From the NCBI GenBank assembly GCA_913045895.1, contig CAJWSQ010000003.1:1-43305 (forward strand): 43,305 bases of DNA. The letters run 5' to 3'. Shown here piece by piece: positions 18,931 to 26,043 of the stretch. The position numbers were made by a program, and so were the translations under genes. Positions within the stretch are counted from its first letter, which is position 1. Every line of letters starts with the position of its first letter. Origin of the DNA: an uncultured Flavobacteriales bacterium. GTDB lineage: Bacteria > Bacteroidota > Bacteroidia > Flavobacteriales_G > Salibacteraceae. A model generated the notes under the pieces. The model was not told the origin of the DNA and did not search any database. It saw only the letters and a list, made by a program, of their open reading frames with translations.

Positions 18931-18988
18931 AATTGACTCATTACGAAATGCAGAGCTAAGTTAGGATGCTTATTAACCTCACTAATAA

Positions 18989-19216
18989 ATTGTATTGTAC
19001 ATTGGTCAAACACAACACAGGGACATTAGTACCTTATGTCTCAACTGTTGTGAATTGCTTTCAACCCCGAAGGGCTCATGAGTTCATCTGGAATTATACA
19101 ACCCACGAATAAATTGTATTGTACATTGGTCAAACACAACAGAAGGTTTGATGGGAAGTGTAAGTCTTGTGTTATGAATTGCTTTCAGATTGTATTGTAC
19201 ATTGGTCAAACACAAC
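18989..19216 (+). CRISPR. Degenerate type II-C CRISPR array, two 30-nt spacers, split repeats
   Basis: The only complete repeat is 19171-19216 (46 nt; starts GTTATGAATTGCTTTCAG, ends TACATTGGTCAAACACAAC). Repeat 1 keeps only the 28-nt 3' half (18989-19016). Repeat 2 is split: its 5' half GTTGTGAATTGCTTTCA is at 19047-19063 and its 3' half at 19113-19140, with 49 nt between. Spacers are 19017-19046 and 19141-19170, each exactly 30 nt, as in II-C systems. Transcription is rightward, because the tracrRNA anti-repeat complements the repeat 5' half, which follows each spacer in that direction. Both spacers are still flanked by a 3' half before and a 5' half after. Spacer targets are unknown. Confidence 0.85.
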
Positions 19217-19236
19217 ATACCGTGTTTGACCTTTTT
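19204..19236 (+). terminator. Intrinsic terminator formed by the last CRISPR repeat
   Basis: GGTCAAACAC (19204-19213, the 3' end of the last repeat) pairs perfectly with GTGTTTGACC (19222-19231) over an 8-nt loop and is followed by TTTTT. It would end array transcription before cas2, which runs the other way. Confidence 0.75.
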
Positions 19237-19281: not shown

Positions 19282-19675
<394 letters not shown>

Positions 19676-19682
19676 GATTTCA

Positions 19683-20588
19683 TTAAATAATCGGATATGC
19701 AATCTTGCGTTTCTCCCCTTCAAAACACTGCATCAAACTTGCTGTAGTGCGTTGCATGCCCACCATCAACGGGCTTTTACTTTCTTCAATGACTACATCA
19801 ATGGTTGGAATAATCAGCAATTCTCTTTTCAATTCGGGTGTCAAATCATCTAAGTCCACATCTTGATATTCTTCTATGATATCCAGTACGATCAGATCAA
19901 CATAAGGTCTGTAAGGTTCCATCACATCATCAGCCAGGCAAAATGCATTGTATTTGTTACGGTGATGAATTCCTAAAGCAGGCAACATACCACTGGCTAC
20001 AATACTTCGGGCAACCACTGCTCGCAAAATAGCATACCCGTAATTCAACAGATTATTGGGTGGCTCACCATACCGAACTCTTCTGAAACCGCTTTCAGGC
20101 CCCAATAACTTAGCCCAATAATTGGCCGCAGCTCTTCCTTCGTAATTGTCAGGATCTCCGCTGCGTACTTTCGAAGACCAATACAACATGTTTTCAACAT
20201 CAATTCCCAATCGCTCTAAAACACGTGCTTGATTATCTATTTTACACTTTACCGTTTGTTGCCATAGATTTTTACGAAGAGGTTCGGATGCATCTAGCTG
20301 ATACCTCAGCTTTTCAGTATAAGTATGGTTGGCTGTCATGGGCATAAACAAACCCGATGGCATGTGGCGCGTATCGCAATTCAAGATAGCTGCATTGTTA
20401 TCGAGTAAGGCTGTTAGCAATGCTTGTGTAATGGTTACGCGTGGATGATCTAAGATAACCATGCCCACATCTTCAATGGGCACTGTTTTGCTCGGTTGAG
20501 CTAGCTCTTCGGGATATTCAACTTTGAGTTGTTGTCTTTCTTTTTTCAGGTAGGCTGGGTTTCCGAAATAGAGTGTTTTTTTGATCAT
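19683..20588 (-). CDS. cas1: CRISPR-associated integrase Cas1 (type II-C)
   Basis: 301 aa from the ATG at 20588 (MIKKTLYFGNPAYLKKER); the open frame runs further upstream to 20651, but the Cas1 fold starts here. Catalytic metal ligands are present: E150 in NYEGRAAANYW, H208 in LGIHHRNKYNAF, and E224 in LADDVMEPYRP (with D220/D221). It is the integrase of the Cas1-Cas2 complex. No csn2 or cas4 is present, which places the locus in subtype II-C. The gene is intact, so the small decayed array is not explained by loss of the integrase. A RAYT gene separates it from cas9. Confidence 0.96.
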   Translation of the reverse strand: MIKKTLYFGNPAYLKKERQQLKVEYPEELAQPSKTVPIEDVGMVILDHPRVTITQALLTALLDNNAAILNCDTRHMPSGLFMPMTANHTYTEKLRYQLDASEPLRKNLWQQTVKCKIDNQARVLERLGIDVENMLYWSSKVRSGDPDNYEGRAAANYWAKLLGPESGFRRVRYGEPPNNLLNYGYAILRAVVARSIVASGMLPALGIHHRNKYNAFCLADDVMEPYRPYVDLIVLDIIEEYQDVDLDDLTPELKRELLIIPTIDVVIEESKSPLMVGMQRTTASLMQCFEGEKRKIAYPII

Positions 20589-20693
20589 GTAGGTTGTTTT
20601 TGTTTTCCATCTGAGATTGAAAAAACAATGCCAAACTGGAAAAATCGACAACTAAAAGATACAACTACTTAATTACGTGCGTGTTAACAAAGT

Positions 20694-20710
20694 AATCTCG
20701 ACTCGAGATT
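20694..20710. repeat. 17-nt perfect palindrome between RAYT and cas1
   Basis: AATCTCGACTCGAGATT is symmetric about one base and followed on + by TTT. It sits 4 nt before a 33-nt palindrome copy. Possible operator or recombination scar; function unknown. Confidence 0.5.
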
Positions 20711-20713
20711 TTT

Positions 20714-20746
20714 AGCTTTTCCAAAGTTTGAAACTTTGGAAAAGCT
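20714..20746. repeat. 33-nt palindrome copy 2 (RAYT-cas1 gap)
   Basis: Perfect palindrome: the common core with arms AGCTTT/AAAGCT. It lies 20 nt downstream of the transposase stop codon. Confidence 0.9.
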
Positions 20747-20765
20747 ACTTGGATAAAACTGTAGC

Positions 20766-21527
20766 TTATTCAATCCCCGTAATTTGAGGTGGGTTTCGAT
20801 GAACAAATTGAAAGTTTGAAGTGCCATCAAAAAGCTCCAACACTTCATCTCGTTGTATAAAAGTGGGGTTATCTGTAATTAAAGTGCTGTATGAACTGTG
20901 CGCCCAGTCTTGTGGGTTTGAAACTAAACTTGCTTCCACCGGATTGTGATGGATGTAGTGGATGAGTTTGATTAGGTATTTGGAGTCTGTAACAGCCTTT
21001 CTTTTGAAGTTCTTCATGAAAAGGCTTCCTTTTCGGTTGTTCACTTTATTAAAACTCTGTGTGTAAGAACTAAAGAGTTTTGAAAACTGCTTAGATATTT
21101 CTTTTGAGAAGTTTTGCTCTTCTAGATTTTCCAAAGTTTGAAACTTTGGAAAATCTCTATTTTGCTTATTGAAGGCTTTAGAATAAGCATTAAAAAAATT
21201 GCTGAATTGTTTAGATAATAGACCTGACAGGTTTGGATTTATTTTCAAAATCTGGAATTTTGATTTTGCTTCTAGCTCTTCCAAAGTTTGGAACTTTGGA
21301 AGAGCTTTTAATAATTCCTTTTCACTTTTGATCTTCACCAAAAAATGAAAATGATTCGGCATAATACAATAGCAATAGGTTTGAGCTATTGGTGAAATAT
21401 AAAGCTGATACTTTTCTAAAAAGAAGCGGTAATTCTCTGCATCCAAAAAAAGCCTCTCGTTCCCATTAGCTCGATTGTATATGTGATACATTCTATCTGG
21501 CTCAAGTTGTGCTTGTTTATTGTGCAT
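20766..21527 (-). CDS. REP-associated tyrosine transposase (RAYT, Y1/HUH family)
   Basis: 253 aa. HUH motif YCIMPNHFHFLVKI (H59, H61) and the catalytic-Tyr region LIKLIHYIHHNPVEASLV (Y191) are intact; RMYHIYNRANGNERLF is the usual RAYT N-terminus. Such single-strand transposases act on palindromic REP hairpins. The centre is unusual. Two 33-nt palindromes are translated in frame (PKFQTLEELE about residues 77-86, PKFQTLENLE about 127-136), and the segment SKQFSNFFNAYSKAFNK (105-121) recurs as SKQFSKLFSSYTQSFNK (145-161), so the core is internally duplicated and the protein longer than usual. It lies between cas9 and cas1 in the same direction, probably an insertion in the cas operon. Catalytic residues suggest it may be active. 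Confidence 0.9.
   Translation of the reverse strand: MHNKQAQLEPDRMYHIYNRANGNERLFLDAENYRFFLEKYQLYISPIAQTYCYCIMPNHFHFLVKIKSEKELLKALPKFQTLEELEAKSKFQILKINPNLSGLLSKQFSNFFNAYSKAFNKQNRDFPKFQTLENLEEQNFSKEISKQFSKLFSSYTQSFNKVNNRKGSLFMKNFKRKAVTDSKYLIKLIHYIHHNPVEASLVSNPQDWAHSSYSTLITDNPTFIQRDEVLELFDGTSNFQFVHRNPPQITGIE
21124..21156. repeat. 33-nt palindrome copy 3, inside the transposase gene
   Basis: Perfect palindrome with arms AGATTT/AAATCT, translated on the minus strand as DFPKFQTLENL. Confidence 0.9.
21222..21264. repeat. Two further small palindromes inside the transposase gene
   Basis: ACCTGACAGGT (21222-21232) and TCAAAATCTGGAATTTTGA (21246-21264, a 7-bp stem). The second reads KFQILK, resembling the KFQTLE peptide of the 33-nt copies, and may be a decayed relative. 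Confidence 0.45.
21274..21306. repeat. 33-nt palindrome copy 4, inside the transposase gene
   Basis: Arms AGCTCT/AGAGCT and the common core with one central change (GTTTGGAAC). Translated as LPKFQTLEELE. Confidence 0.85.
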
Positions 21528-21550
21528 GGTTGAAAATTGAATGCTATTGA

Positions 21551-21583
21551 ACCACCTCCAAAGTTTGAAACTTTGCAGGTGGT
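21551..21583. repeat. 33-nt palindrome copy 5 (cas9-RAYT gap)
   Basis: Arms ACCACC/GGTGGT around the common core, one mismatch in the stem. It is 24 nt upstream of the RAYT start codon. Confidence 0.85.
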
Positions 21584-21616: not shown

Positions 21617-21649
21617 AAACCAGACAGGTTTCAGAAACCTGTCTGGTTT
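21617..21649 (-). repeat. GACAGG-type palindrome directly after cas9
   Basis: AAACCAGACAGGTTT and AAACCTGTCTGGTTT pair perfectly around CAG. It begins 2 nt after the cas9 stop and is followed on the minus strand by TTTTAT, so it may terminate cas9 transcription. It is the partner of the palindrome at 18896-18930. Confidence 0.8.
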
Positions 21650-21651
21650 AA

Positions 21652-24600
21652 TTACGCTCTAGAAATGTTCCCTAGTCGATCTACTTTTAATTTGATGCAA
21701 CAATCTTTTATCATCTGGTCATCCATACTTCTCTCCATCTTATTTAATGAAGAGAATTCCTCTTTATTAACAATAGAAATCGCGACATCATTTCTAATAA
21801 AGAAAGATTGTGCCTTTGAAAAGCTTACAACTTTGTAAATTCTATTAACTTTTTCGCTACTCAGATTTCTAAAATCGATGTTAGAAATATCTTCTACTTC
21901 ATCTTTAGTCGGTACATACACAATGTCATTTGGTGATAAATGAAATAATAATCTATTTCCTTTTTCATCCTTATCAGGCACACTACTAAGCCCTTGTTTC
22001 TGCCTTTCAATTACAATATTCAATGGTATGGTTTCGTATATCCTTTTTTTAGTCTTGTTATCAAAATAAATAGCAAAAAACAAGTTAGTACCCTTAGCAG
22101 CTTCGACATACTTGGTCTTTTTATTCCCCTCATAGCCTACGGGATACTTAGTTCCAACCTCAAAAATACGAACCTTTAATATTGGCTTATGCGGTTTTCC
22201 ATCGTTAAAAAAATGAATACTTCTATTCATGTCTTCTATTCCCTCTGGAGAAAAAGCCAAGTCTGGTTTTCCACCTTTACTGAGTAGGTAATTTTTTAAA
22301 ATCTTTTGTATCCCAGTATCTGTTATAGAATCAATAACTTTTTGATTAAAAGAGGTGTCTAAATTCTTGCGTGTAGCTGTCAATATCTTCCCCTTTGGAA
22401 CTTTTATTCTAGGTAGTTCAACAAAACCCGAAACTGTTTCTTTATGCATTGGCTTTCTAATAGCCCAATTCACACCTTTTTGCTCAACTTTAACTTTTTT
22501 ACCATTTTCTATTTTCTCATAATAATTTGTGGCTTTGTTTATTACCCTAAGGTTCTGCTTAAAGCTAACAACAATTCCTTCTAGTTCATTTTTGACATCT
22601 ACTGTAAAGCCAGACCATGGTTTATTAAAAATCCATTTGTAATTACCATCTTTATCTGGCTTTGTTTTGAAACACAAGCTGTTTTTTAATTGAGTCCTAA
22701 GTTCTATTTGCTTTTTCTTTCTTGCCTCACTTTTTAAATCTTCAACTTTTGCAGAGGTGTTATTCAAGTAGTTCACATGACTCCTAGTTGCACATGCTAT
22801 AACCAATGCATCCATTGCATGATGGCGATGATCAATACGCTTCTTTTGAAATCCTTTAGAAAGTTCTAATGGCACCGTAGGTAAATACTTTTGATACTTA
22901 TCGTTCCAAGAAGTAAAATCATTGCTCTCTGTCAGCTCATTCATTCGCTGAAACCTAGGTAAGATTAAATCATTCCAAACACCATTTATACCCCAATCCT
23001 GTTTTAACTTACTGGTAATTTTACCATTAATAGATATAATGTTATTGGAGTTTACACCATCGTCATTTTTATCAGACCTTACAATATTTGACAAGAGATT
23101 TGTAACGAATTTGCTTATATATCGTGTATCGTTCAATTGGCGCTCAATCATTTTATCAGGAATATCTTCCAACAGCAGCTTACTTCTCTTTGATCTATTT
23201 TTATGGAAATGGTTATTGACAAATTCGGTATATACTTCTTCATTTAAAATCTCAACCACTCCAAAAACAGTTGAAACCTTTTGACCGTGATGATTTTTTA
23301 TAAACTCTAAACCTAACTGCCTATCCTTTAAGCTATTTACTTCAGACTCACAAATCACCTTATTACTTATACTATCATCAAAATATCTACTTTGAGGAAT
23401 AACGTGTTCAATTTCGTATGCAGAAGTAAAAAGCTTATTTAATGGAATAGGCCTACCTGTATATGGCGACTTGTATTTTTGTTCTAACCAAAGTTTGTAA
23501 CGTTGAATTTCAGATTTTGAAGGCTCAGCTTTATGACTGATTCTTTCTATCTCATCAGGAACATCAATTCCTGAATTAAGTACTCCTTCTTCATATATTT
23601 TTAAAGCTTCTTGCTGCATTGGAGAGTAAGGACGTACATTTTCTACTGATTTATCATTTAACAACTCTGATAATATTGACTTGATACGTAAATTGGTATT
23701 CTCATTTTCAGCAATCGTATTTGATATTCGCTTACGTTTGTCTGATGGGTTTTTTAAATCGCGCCCAAGCTCGATATGGATCTCATCAAAGAAATCTTTT
23801 TCTCCTTTTCCAAACTGATTCCAAATATCTTTTACAACCCTCAATGTTTCTGTAACAACCTGTTCTACAATAGGATTACGCAATGAATGCTGTTTAAATT
23901 CACGTAAATAATCATCTAGATCAGCAACCGAACTCCATTTTCCAGCATCACTAGCCTCAGAGTGACGATCGTATACAATGTATTGAGCCAACCATAACTG
24001 TAGCCCTTGGAAATGTACATGCTCAGTTAAATTTATTGCCTTTTCACGGACTCTATTTTGAATCTCCTCATCAAATTCACCTGAAATTAATTTATCAATA
24101 CGAGATTTAATTTTAGAATCAATATTATCCCATTCCCAATATTTGCCCGTTCTCATCAGTGGCAAAAGCTTCTTAATTGCTTTTTCAGAATACCTACCAT
24201 ATTCACTCACATAAGGTTTATGATTTTTAAAACTCTCTTTAAATGAATTTATGTCAATGCTATTTCTATCTGCAAAGGTCTTTAAAGCCTTTTCAAATTC
24301 GTTTTTATCTGTTACGGAATAAATAATATGCCACAGTTGCTGCTCAATTTTTCTTGTAAAAAAATCAACTGGTACATTTTCTACCTTTTCTAATCTCCTG
24401 CCAATTTCATAGCCCGTTTCATTCATGGGATATTTTTTAGACTTTTCATCTTCTTTATCCTTTGAATCATCAAATACATAGTTCCAACGATATTTAGCAA
24501 TTTCTTTTGCTAACTCCGTTTTTAAAGCTTTTGGTTTCGCATTTGGGAATTTTGCATTTACTAAAGGTTCAAGGAAATAATTCAAAATGTCTATATGATT

Positions 24601-26043
24601 AACTTCTTTTTTGGACATCAGAAAACCGAACAACTTTTCTTGATCTTCAGTGCTTTTAATGAATTTTGATGTTAAATCGGCATCATCTTTTTTAGAATAA
24701 ATTTTTAGGTTATACATCCATTGCCATACCCTAAATTCTTGGTAGTAAGGATTAGATTTTGGAATACCCTTAAGAAATTGAGTTTGCTCTAGTCCGTCTT
24801 TAATCTTGTATGTTTTATACTCCAAAGAGCAATTTCCAATTGATGTCTTTTGACTTTTCAAGGGGCGTTGGTAAAAAATAATGTCATTTAAAAACAAGTG
24901 AACAAAATCATTCTTGCTTTTTAACTGAAGCCGGTGCCCTTCATTACTTCTGTACAATTCTCTTATGCAGCCATTGTATAAATCGGTTGTAAATAATTCT
25001 GGCTGTAATTCAATTTGTTTTTTCAGAATAGCTTTTAATTCTTTCTTATAAAACTTCCTTTCAATAGTGCGAACTAACTTACCTCTTATTTTCTGAGACG
25101 GATTTTGTAATAAAGCTTCGTAAATATACGCTCCCACTGTTTTATCTGAATTTATAATTTCTTGTTCCGTTTTCTTTTTAAGTAAAGTCCAATCATCTTC
25201 CTTAGGAGCTCGAAAACTTCTTTTCGGCTCACCCTCTTTATTGGTCTTTATAGATCCATCATCATTAACATCAGTAGTTACAATGAAGTCTTTGACTTTT
25301 CCCTTCCAATCAGATAAATCAGTTTTGCTTGAACGTCTATATACCCATCCATTTTCAAGAACTAATGAATACCAAGTTTCTCCCTTTTTATTGAGCTCTT
25401 CATCTGATTGGATGTCAACAATCTTAAGAGAGTGAAATTCTACAAGTTTATTTGGGTTCTCTTCTTCTTCTTCCCCTCGCAACTGATAATAGCCTCGTTT
25501 CTGATTAAAATTGAGAATTATCCATGCTAATTCTTCTTTTTTAATTTTTTGAGTTATGGCTTTCTTACGTAAATAATAAATTGTCCAATCATACGGAATC
25601 TTCGAATCATGGCCATTTGCAACAAAAGCTTCAACCATTTCATCAAACGACTCTTGAAAAATAAATTCAAAATTGCCCTTCTCATTTTTATTCCATGCCA
25701 GCTTAGGTTCTAGATTTTCTCTGAATTGCCCTAATCTTTTTTCAAAATCTATTTGCAGAGCATAATGTTTTGGAAGAAATCCAAGAACGTTTAGAACTCT
25801 ATGTAATCTTTCCCTTCGAAGTAAGTGTCTTTCACGTAACCTTCTAACTCCACGATAACTCGTTCTTTCAGCTGTTTGAGAAATTGTATTCCCTTTTCCG
25901 AAATCACCGATTAAATCTTGGCTCATTGGAATTATTCGACTTCCGATCCCTAGTATTTTACCTTGCTTTTTCTTAAAATCTTGTTCAATCAAAGCCCATC
26001 CAATGGAGTTAGTTCCCAAGTCCAATCCTAAAATTCTTTTCAT
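21652..26043 (-). CDS. cas9: CRISPR-associated endonuclease Cas9 (type II-C)
   Basis: 1463 aa, full length for the long II-C Cas9 of Bacteroidota. In order: RuvC-I RILGLDLGTNSIGWAL (D8), arginine-rich bridge helix RGVRRLRERHLLRRERLHR (residues 64-82), recognition lobe, RuvC-II DEIHIELGRDL (E758), HNH with YEIEHVIPQSRYFDDSISNK (H880), RuvC-III IDHRHHAMDALV (H1074/H1075, D1078), then a C-terminal PAM-interacting region. All nuclease residues are present, so it should cut both target strands under crRNA:tracrRNA guidance. The tracrRNA is divergent, just upstream. RAYT, cas1 and cas2 follow downstream in the same direction. No frameshift or stop is seen. The PAM cannot be read from sequence. Confidence 0.97.
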   Translation of the reverse strand: MKRILGLDLGTNSIGWALIEQDFKKKQGKILGIGSRIIPMSQDLIGDFGKGNTISQTAERTSYRGVRRLRERHLLRRERLHRVLNVLGFLPKHYALQIDFEKRLGQFRENLEPKLAWNKNEKGNFEFIFQESFDEMVEAFVANGHDSKIPYDWTIYYLRKKAITQKIKKEELAWIILNFNQKRGYYQLRGEEEEENPNKLVEFHSLKIVDIQSDEELNKKGETWYSLVLENGWVYRRSSKTDLSDWKGKVKDFIVTTDVNDDGSIKTNKEGEPKRSFRAPKEDDWTLLKKKTEQEIINSDKTVGAYIYEALLQNPSQKIRGKLVRTIERKFYKKELKAILKKQIELQPELFTTDLYNGCIRELYRSNEGHRLQLKSKNDFVHLFLNDIIFYQRPLKSQKTSIGNCSLEYKTYKIKDGLEQTQFLKGIPKSNPYYQEFRVWQWMYNLKIYSKKDDADLTSKFIKSTEDQEKLFGFLMSKKEVNHIDILNYFLEPLVNAKFPNAKPKALKTELAKEIAKYRWNYVFDDSKDKEDEKSKKYPMNETGYEIGRRLEKVENVPVDFFTRKIEQQLWHIIYSVTDKNEFEKALKTFADRNSIDINSFKESFKNHKPYVSEYGRYSEKAIKKLLPLMRTGKYWEWDNIDSKIKSRIDKLISGEFDEEIQNRVREKAINLTEHVHFQGLQLWLAQYIVYDRHSEASDAGKWSSVADLDDYLREFKQHSLRNPIVEQVVTETLRVVKDIWNQFGKGEKDFFDEIHIELGRDLKNPSDKRKRISNTIAENENTNLRIKSILSELLNDKSVENVRPYSPMQQEALKIYEEGVLNSGIDVPDEIERISHKAEPSKSEIQRYKLWLEQKYKSPYTGRPIPLNKLFTSAYEIEHVIPQSRYFDDSISNKVICESEVNSLKDRQLGLEFIKNHHGQKVSTVFGVVEILNEEVYTEFVNNHFHKNRSKRSKLLLEDIPDKMIERQLNDTRYISKFVTNLLSNIVRSDKNDDGVNSNNIISINGKITSKLKQDWGINGVWNDLILPRFQRMNELTESNDFTSWNDKYQKYLPTVPLELSKGFQKKRIDHRHHAMDALVIACATRSHVNYLNNTSAKVEDLKSEARKKKQIELRTQLKNSLCFKTKPDKDGNYKWIFNKPWSGFTVDVKNELEGIVVSFKQNLRVINKATNYYEKIENGKKVKVEQKGVNWAIRKPMHKETVSGFVELPRIKVPKGKILTATRKNLDTSFNQKVIDSITDTGIQKILKNYLLSKGGKPDLAFSPEGIEDMNRSIHFFNDGKPHKPILKVRIFEVGTKYPVGYEGNKKTKYVEAAKGTNLFFAIYFDNKTKKRIYETIPLNIVIERQKQGLSSVPDKDEKGNRLLFHLSPNDIVYVPTKDEVEDISNIDFRNLSSEKVNRIYKVVSFSKAQSFFIRNDVAISIVNKEEFSSLNKMERSMDDQMIKDCCIKLKVDRLGNISRA

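What the first reader, a model, noticed from the sequence alone, without database searches (positions are those of the whole stretch)
21033..21306. RAYT with its own palindromes translated in frame and an internal duplication
Two 33-nt palindromes (11 codons each) lie in frame inside the transposase and encode nearly the same peptide PKFQTLE(E/N)LE. Each precedes a copy of the same segment, SKQFSNFFNAYSKAFNK and SKQFSKLFSSYTQSFNK. So the centre is a duplicated module with a palindrome at each start, possibly from recombination between palindromes. The enzyme would then carry its substrate hairpin in its own mRNA and gene, allowing self-recognition or autoregulation.
Basis: partly seen in the sequence, partly recalled or inferred. 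Interest (0 to 1): 0.75.

Follow-up and report, generated by a model that had tools for sequence, protein, structure and literature searches.

The report
Transposase gene carrying its own palindromes
A small transposase-like gene lodged inside a bacterial CRISPR-Cas9 operon carries, within its own protein-coding sequence, copies of the DNA hairpin that also surrounds it, and comparison with about 110 relatives shows that this is a recurrent habit of its family rather than an accident of this one gene.

Summary
Observation confirmed; interpretation partly right. The 253-aa RAYT (20766-21527, minus strand) holds two perfect 33-nt palindromes in frame (21274-21306, 21124-21156). They belong to a palindrome family whose only other close copies in the 3.06-Mb genome lie at the gene borders of the surrounding type II-C cas operon.
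The palindrome is a family habit: 57 of 114 Bacteroidota RAYT ORFs have one between the HUH strand and helix alphaC, about 139 times denser than in neighbouring ORFs. Its sequence differs between lineages but matches the palindromes outside the same gene, and the same palindrome occurs in different reading frames. So the DNA symmetry is kept, not the peptide.
The 'internal duplication' is not a recent one. Both segments are alphaC helices (not the catalytic Tyr) and are only 30/51 nt identical. One resembles another RAYT lineage and follows a decayed palindrome of a second family. The gene is best read as a chimera: a ~150-nt piece bracketed by palindromes. It is the only one in 114.
In-frame REPs inside RAYT genes were reported for another subclass (Quentin 2018). 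New here: this clade, the frame-independence, the chimera, and repeated residence of such RAYTs inside II-C and I-B cas operons. Autoregulation is untested.

The parts
20766..21527 (-). RAYT (REP-associated tyrosine transposase), 253 aa
   Evidence: ORF; NCBIfam NF047646 E 3.8e-18 but below its cut-off; AF2 pLDDT 88, best PDB match 4er8
21345..21353 (-). HUH motif HFH (H59, H61)
   Evidence: first His invariant in 114 homologs; N58, H59 and H61 invariant in A2
20955..20957 (-). Y191 of the Y motif YIHHNP, catalytic Tyr by homology
   Evidence: invariant in A2; Y motif as defined in PMC6006769 Table 1
21274..21306 (.). in-frame palindrome 1 (family 1), encodes ALPKFQTLEEL
   Evidence: perfect 15-nt arms; same place and core in relative L007
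21220..21257 (.). decayed family-2 palindrome (right arm AGACCTGACAGGTTT at 21220-21234), encodes ..NPNLSGL
   Evidence: sequence; intact family-2 palindromes in L034, L042, L074 have the same NLSGL-x-S..FSN context
21165..21215 (-). module 1, SKQFSNFFNAYSKAFNK (extra alphaC-like helix)
   Evidence: closest to L021/L055 (43/51 nt), 30/51 to module 2; predicted region pLDDT 54-73
21124..21156 (.). in-frame palindrome 2 (family 1), encodes RDFPKFQTLENL
   Evidence: perfect 16-nt arms
21124..21273 (-). about 150-nt insert relative to G005/L007 (linker + module 1 + palindrome 2), in frame
   Evidence: pairwise DNA alignment
21045..21095 (-). module 2, SKQFSKLFSSYTQSFNK = the genuine alphaC helix
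   Evidence: 48/51 nt identical to L007; helix 132-163 at pLDDT ~95
21547..21583 (.). family-1 palindrome between cas9 and RAYT (one broken pair)
21617..21649 (.). family-2 palindrome just after the cas9 stop
   Evidence: conserved in G005 (L020:4783-4815)
20713..20747 (.). family-1 palindrome between RAYT and cas1
19643..19675 (.). family-1 palindrome between cas1 and cas2
21652..26043 (-). cas9 (1463 aa, type II)
   Evidence: ORF; tblastn to Cas9 of many loci
19683..20588 (-). cas1
19282..19623 (-). cas2

Best explanation
The gene is a HUH/Y1 RAYT whose cognate palindromes (REP-like elements) sit around it and inside it. In this Bacteroidota clade the linker between the HUH strand (beta3) and helix alphaC is the preferred seat for the RAYT's own palindrome. 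SHOWN: position, in-frame state, sequence match between inside and outside, change of palindrome sequence and of reading frame between lineages, concentration in this linker. INFERRED: the RAYT nicks and rejoins single-stranded DNA at these hairpins and moves them mostly locally; insertions in the surface linker that keep the frame survive; the in-gene copy is renewed by re-insertion or conversion from the outer copies, so gene and cognate hairpin stay physically linked. In the window this produced a chimera: a ~150-nt piece of another RAYT lineage (decayed family-2 palindrome plus alphaC helix), bracketed by family-1 palindromes, was added in frame. The original alphaC (module 2) still makes the core and module 1 is an appended helix. 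The RAYT and its palindromes live inside a type II-C cas operon, a residence seen repeatedly in this clade.
For: 57/114 homologs have a strong palindrome between HUH and alphaC, with a clear score gap. Density 42 in 16.9 kb of linker against 11 in 614 kb of other ORFs and 4 in 53 kb of the rest of RAYT. Inside/outside match 10.38 of 12 against 8.20 (sd 0.26, max 9.08 of 1000 permutations) over 26 loci. 13 of 15 stem positions change on both sides among 26 perfect examples. Same palindrome read in different frames: L113 TFPKFETLEKL, L099 NNFSKVEKNFGKVV. Chimera: module identities, alignment to L007, pLDDT pattern. Palindromes also at cas gene borders and in frame inside cas9 (L051), cas1 (L053, part of a 15-aa insert) and cas3 (L161).
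Against: Movement by the RAYT is not shown. Copy numbers are low: 5 here, 7 in G005, and in G130 and G252 the only exact family-2 copy is the in-gene one. Half of the homologs lack the palindrome. The permutation test does not correct for shared ancestry. The window genome is a fragmented assembly (371 contigs), so a misassembly at palindromes is not excluded, although the frame stays open.
Confidence: 0.68

Rival explanations
1. The in-gene hairpin is an autoregulatory site: RAYT binds the hairpin in its own mRNA or in single-stranded DNA at its gene and limits its own expression.
For: Perfect hairpins, -21.4 and -16.7 kcal/mol as RNA, z -6.4 and -5.6. Retained across distant lineages with changed sequence. 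In two genomes the gene's own copy is the only exact copy.
Against: Half of the homologs have none. Gained or lost many times: at least 21 changes on the tree. Isolated broken pairs are not mainly G-U, as RNA selection would favour. An internal position far from the start codon is unusual for repression.
Confidence: 0.2
2. Pure tolerance: palindromes land at random near RAYT genes and survive only where the protein has a flexible loop; perfect arms are kept by hairpin-templated (quasi-palindrome) correction. No function.
For: Linker is low-confidence in the model and varies in length. In-frame palindromes also occur in nearby cas9, cas1 and cas3.
Against: Linker density about 33-fold above the rest of RAYT and 139-fold above neighbouring ORFs. 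Correction alone does not explain the match in sequence with outer copies.
Confidence: 0.3
3. The peptide (PKFQTLE, LxGFxNLxxL) is what is selected and the DNA symmetry is secondary.
For: 48 of 57 palindromes are in one frame with centre on the first base of the same codon, and an F-x-x-L pattern recurs.
Against: Nine are in other frames with unrelated peptides, including the same palindrome in two frames. Arms of 15-18 perfect pairs go far beyond what a peptide needs.
Confidence: 0.04
4. The window gene arose by a simple tandem duplication of palindrome plus alphaC inside one RAYT.
For: Two palindromes and two alphaC segments in the same order.
Against: Modules 30/51 nt identical while palindromes are nearly identical. 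Module 2 is 48/51 to L007 and module 1 43/51 to L021/L055. A family-2 remnant precedes module 1 only.
Confidence: 0.12
5. Assembly artefact joining two RAYT genes at a palindrome.
For: Genome is in 371 contigs; palindromes are hard for short reads.
Against: ORF open through the junctions with a 150-nt (3n) insert. Only one RAYT of this type found in the genome.
Confidence: 0.08

Closest known systems
REP insertions inside tnpAREP genes of subclass 2.4 (Quentin et al. 2018, PMC6006769; RAYT group 4)
   Same: Cognate REPs inserted in frame in the RAYT gene, between HuH and Y motifs (between beta3 and alphaC).
   Different: The paper calls this unique to subclass 2.4 (WQ, YIxNNP, no tail, GT[AG]G-footed REPs). 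The present clade has GSLF in place of WQ, YIHxNP, an SS tail, and palindromes without a GTAG foot. Frame variation and chimeras are not described in the passages read.
E. coli RAYT/TnpAREP (PDB 4er8)
   Same: HUH/Y1 fold, best structural match (E 4e-6); flanked by palindromes.
   Different: 10% identity in the structural alignment. GTAG-tagged REPs in hundreds of copies (own knowledge) against 5 untagged copies here; no in-gene REP known to me.
Intragenic REPs and Rickettsia palindromic elements (RPE)
   Same: Palindromes translated in frame inside unrelated genes (REPs: PMC3733652; RPE from own knowledge).
   Different: Here concentrated in one linker of the cognate transposase gene, plus a few in adjacent cas genes.
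Type II-C CRISPR-Cas loci
   Same: cas9-cas1-cas2-array layout and order.
   Different: A RAYT gene lies between cas9 and cas1 with palindromes at each gene border; no such gene was found in the papers searched.

Membership tests
RAYT / TnpAREP | HUH motif | tested here: met
   NHFH 58-61; first His invariant in 114/114
RAYT / TnpAREP | Single catalytic Tyr in Y motif (YIHxNP) | tested here: met
   Y191 in YIHHNP, invariant in A2; catalysis itself not tested
RAYT / TnpAREP | Fold of the family | tested here: met
   AF2 model best PDB match 4er8, TM 0.73 by target length
RAYT / TnpAREP | NCBIfam NF047646 above curated cut-off | tested here: not met
   65.8 bits against cut-off 80, E 3.8e-18; the match comes in two stretches. 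A database threshold, not a biological defining feature
RAYT / TnpAREP | Flanked by palindromes of its own family; low copy, not an expanded IS | tested here: met
Canonical REP | GT[AG]G foot next to the hairpin | tested here: not met
   no GTAG/GTGG beside the window palindromes (read)
Canonical REP | High genomic copy number, dispersed | tested here: not met
   5 copies, all within 2 kb
Quentin subclass 2.4 | WQ and YIxNNP motifs, no tail domain | tested here: not met
   GSLF-type in place of WQ; YIHxNP; SS tail in most of 114 against Table 1; no reference sequences aligned
Quentin subclass 2.4 | REP inserted in frame between HuH and Y | tested here: met
Quentin subclass 2.1 (second motif set) | NH[YF]H, FQ, Y[IV]HLNP, SS tail; no REPs | tested here: inconclusive
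   motifs fit better than 2.4, but palindromes are present
Type II-C CRISPR-Cas | cas9, cas1, cas2 and array, with no further cas gene | tested here: met
   short array at 18970-19222; neighbouring ORFs other than RAYT not searched for csn2/cas4 by profile

The most novel reading that the evidence does not exclude
This RAYT clade is a working, recurrently recruited part of CRISPR-Cas operons in Bacteroidota (II-C and I-B): its HUH nuclease and palindromes help shuffle cas modules or handle single-stranded DNA during adaptation, and the in-gene palindrome ties enzyme and site together.
Probability: 0.14. Interest if true: 0.88.

Novelty: new variant of a known kind. Interest (0 to 1): 0.6.

Why it matters
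It makes the question 'what do RAYTs recognise, and why do they persist as single-copy genes?' testable: in this clade each gene carries its predicted site, so gene and site can be paired lineage by lineage and swapped. It extends in-frame REPs to a second RAYT group and shows that the DNA symmetry, not the peptide, is kept. It also reveals that such RAYTs sit inside cas operons far more often than chance. If functional, that would add a nuclease to CRISPR biology; if not, it shows cas operons as habitual hosts of REP systems and palindromes as likely breakpoints of cas module exchange.

Tried and rejected
1) I first took the Tyr of the duplicated segment for the catalytic one (an apparent Y1-to-Y2 change). 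Rejected: the Y motif is YIHxNP (PMC6006769 Table 1), so only a structural helix is doubled. 2) Dispersed genome-wide REP family in this genome: rejected, copies are confined to the cas operon. 3) RNA-level selection by G-U excess: no clear excess. 4) Cas1 of L051 as an in-frame case: rejected, that palindrome lies before its start codon. 5) Rfam search of the locus: nothing above threshold. 6) Literature searches for RAYT with CRISPR: no relevant paper in the library. 8) Supplementary Figure S10 of PMC6006769, which shows the known in-gene REPs, could not be read.

Full report
OBSERVATION. The ORF at 20766-21527 (minus strand, 253 aa) contains two perfect 33-nt palindromes in frame, at 21274-21306 and 21124-21156, as described. 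The core CCAAAGTTNNNAACTTTGG is found 6 times in the window with up to 2 mismatches against 0.06 expected. In the whole genome (3.06 Mb, 371 contigs, 83% complete) the exact core occurs only 4 times, with one further copy at one mismatch. All five are at 19650-21576: between cas2 and cas1, between cas1 and RAYT, twice inside RAYT, and between RAYT and cas9. The gene therefore sits in a type II-C CRISPR operon (cas9-RAYT-cas1-cas2-array), and its palindromes mark the gene borders of that operon.

WHAT THE PROTEIN IS. The HUH motif is at residues 58-61 and the Y motif YIHHNP at Y191. NCBIfam's RAYT model matches at E 3.8e-18 but below its cut-off. An AlphaFold2 model from 50 window and locus sequences has mean pLDDT 88, and its best PDB match is the E. 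coli RAYT bound to a REP hairpin, 4er8, E 4.4e-6. The duplicated segment is helix alphaC; the catalytic Tyr by the published motif definition is in YIHxNP, not here. In the model, alphaC comes from module 2 (helix 132-163, pLDDT ~95), while the linker with both palindromes and module 1 (about 80-140) is at 54-73.

RELATIVES. Homologs were collected from a phylum sample and from named genomes, giving 114 RAYT ORFs. 57 have a strong palindrome between the HUH strand and alphaC, with a gap between scores of 9 and above and those of 8 and below. The centre lies 17, 20 or 21 codons before the conserved alphaC Tyr most often. Palindromes with arms of 12 or more occur 42 times in 16.9 kb of this linker, 4 times in 53 kb of the rest of the RAYT genes, and 11 times in 614 kb of other ORFs at the same loci. 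Sequences differ: CCAAAGTTTCAAACTTTGG, CCTGACAGGTTTTGAAAACCTGTCAGG, CCTCCAAGGGTTTCAAACCCTTGGAGG, CCCTGCGGGTTT.., TTTCCGAAAGTT.., and others. Among 26 perfect phase-0 examples, 13 of 15 stem positions change on both sides and none on one side only; these examples were chosen for perfect arms, so this shows variety, not strength of selection. Isolated broken pairs in the wider set are not mainly G-U.

INSIDE EQUALS OUTSIDE. For 26 loci with an internal palindrome and at least one within 1.5 kb outside, the best half-arm match is 10.38 of 12, against 8.20 (sd 0.26, maximum 9.08) when internal palindromes are permuted among loci. Rare types are especially telling: L081, L084, L111, L125 and L078 each have their own unusual palindrome inside and outside. 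The test is not corrected for ancestry. In the phylum sample an exact family-2 31-mer occurs in 6 of 41 RAYT-bearing genomes and 5 of 354 others. In G130 and G252 the only copy lies within the RAYT gene.

DNA, NOT PEPTIDE. 48 of 57 are in one frame; nine are in others. The same palindrome CTTTTCCAAAGTT..AACTTTGGAAAAG reads TFPKFETLEKL in L113 and NNFSKVEKNFGKVV in L099. Presence changes at least 21 times on a tree built without the linker. So palindromes are gained, lost and replaced at this seat.

THE 'DUPLICATION'. Only the window has two alphaC segments (1 of 114). The two share 30 of 51 nt. Module 2 is 48/51 identical to L007 (genome G005, another genus of the same family), while module 1 is nearest to L021/L055 (43/51). 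Aligned with L007, the window gene is collinear except for about 150 nt after palindrome 1: linker, module 1 and palindrome 2. Just before module 1 stands the decayed family-2 palindrome (AGACCTGACAGGTTT, 21220-21234), in the same relation to NLSGL-x-SKQFSN as in true family-2 RAYTs (L034, L042). The best reading is a chimera bracketed by family-1 palindromes. G005 itself has a tandem, truncated RAYT copy ending at a palindrome, which shows that rearrangement at palindromes happens in this locus.

CRISPR OPERONS. Of 80 named loci, 22 have the RAYT in a type II-C operon and 3 in or beside a I-B locus (L068, L073, L080). The 80 were ranked by similarity to a CRISPR-linked query, so this share is biased. 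In the evenly drawn phylum sample, 6 of 40 other RAYT-bearing genomes have a RAYT within about 1.2 kb of cas1: G169, G227, G361 (II-C), G323, G149, G133 (I-B). G079 has one 2.5 kb away. From the 18 cas1 hits and about 51 RAYTs in those genomes I estimate about 0.02 expected by chance (own arithmetic). Conversely only 3 of the 29 other best cas1 loci contain a RAYT, so it is an occasional passenger, not a core gene. RAYT has the same strand as the cas genes in all 26 II-C loci, usually with gaps near zero. In CRISPR-linked loci 26 of 30 RAYTs have both neighbours on the same strand, against 28 of 68 elsewhere. Positions vary: cas9-RAYT-cas1 mostly; cas1-RAYT-cas2 in L052, L053; after cas1 in L107; after cas2 in L062. 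RAYT distances correlate with those of cas1 and cas2 (r 0.46 and 0.51) less than cas1 with cas2 (0.70), which suggests partial co-inheritance with repeated gains. In G079 a cas9-cas1-cas2-array island of about 6.7 kb lies between RAYT and secA, which are about 54 nt apart in L065. There the CRISPR system apparently came to the RAYT.

MECHANISM. Shown: anatomy, seat, match, turnover, chimera, location. Inferred from RAYT/IS200-type biology: single-strand nicking and joining at hairpins, mostly local movement, survival in a surface linker, renewal from outer copies. Function beyond this (autoregulation, CRISPR role) is open.

KNOWN OR NEW. Quentin et al. 2018 (PMC6006769) report REPs in frame inside tnpAREP genes, between HuH and Y, as unique to subclass 2.4. 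The present clade differs in W motif, tail and palindrome type, so it is a second group with the same habit: a new variant of a known kind. No paper linking RAYTs with CRISPR operons was found in the library searched; that library lacks many subscription papers.

Noticed in passing
L051-L130, L025, L033, L037, L161, L162: RAYTs of this clade are embedded in cas operons (II-C and I-B), same strand as the cas genes and often overlapping or abutting cas1; far above chance.
   Followed up: yes
L051:7670, L053:7396, L161:11194-11226: Palindromes in frame inside cas9 (TTFPKFQTLEKW), inside cas1 (part of a 15-aa insert absent from the other cas1 compared) and inside cas3 (DLSGLENLTGL).
   Followed up: partly
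window:21652-26043 against L020:4822-10269: Window and G005 share RAYT, cas1 (75%) and cas2 (91%) but have very different Cas9s (about 30%); DNA homology stops about 60 nt inside the cas9 3' end, so cas9 was probably exchanged beside the palindromes.
   Followed up: partly
L163:4636-11319 against L065:8639-8693: A cas9-cas1-cas2-array island of about 6.7 kb sits between RAYT and secA, which are about 54 nt apart in a relative without CRISPR there.
   Followed up: partly
L089:7690-10400: Dozens of tandem AACCTCCAAGGTTT palindromes with a constant spacer (TTAAAATAAACAACACAGCA) flank an Ekhidna RAYT.
   Followed up: no
L162:11560-11960: The G149 RAYT is split near its HUH motif by an ORF that looks like a GIY-YIG endonuclease.
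   Followed up: no
L020:4493-4762: Truncated tandem copy of the RAYT 5' part (96% over 140 nt) ending at a palindrome in the opposite orientation.
   Followed up: partly
L133, L136, L147, L158: Small ORFs or unexplained gaps between cas1 and cas2 in some II-C loci without RAYT; other inserts may use the same gaps.
   Followed up: no
window:18970-19222: Very short CRISPR array (about three recognisable repeats) next to cas2; G005 has about 29.
   Followed up: no
L087, L096, L101, L106 linkers: Palindrome arms separated by in-frame inserts of tens of nt, or single arms only: likely decay stages of the in-gene palindrome.
   Followed up: partly
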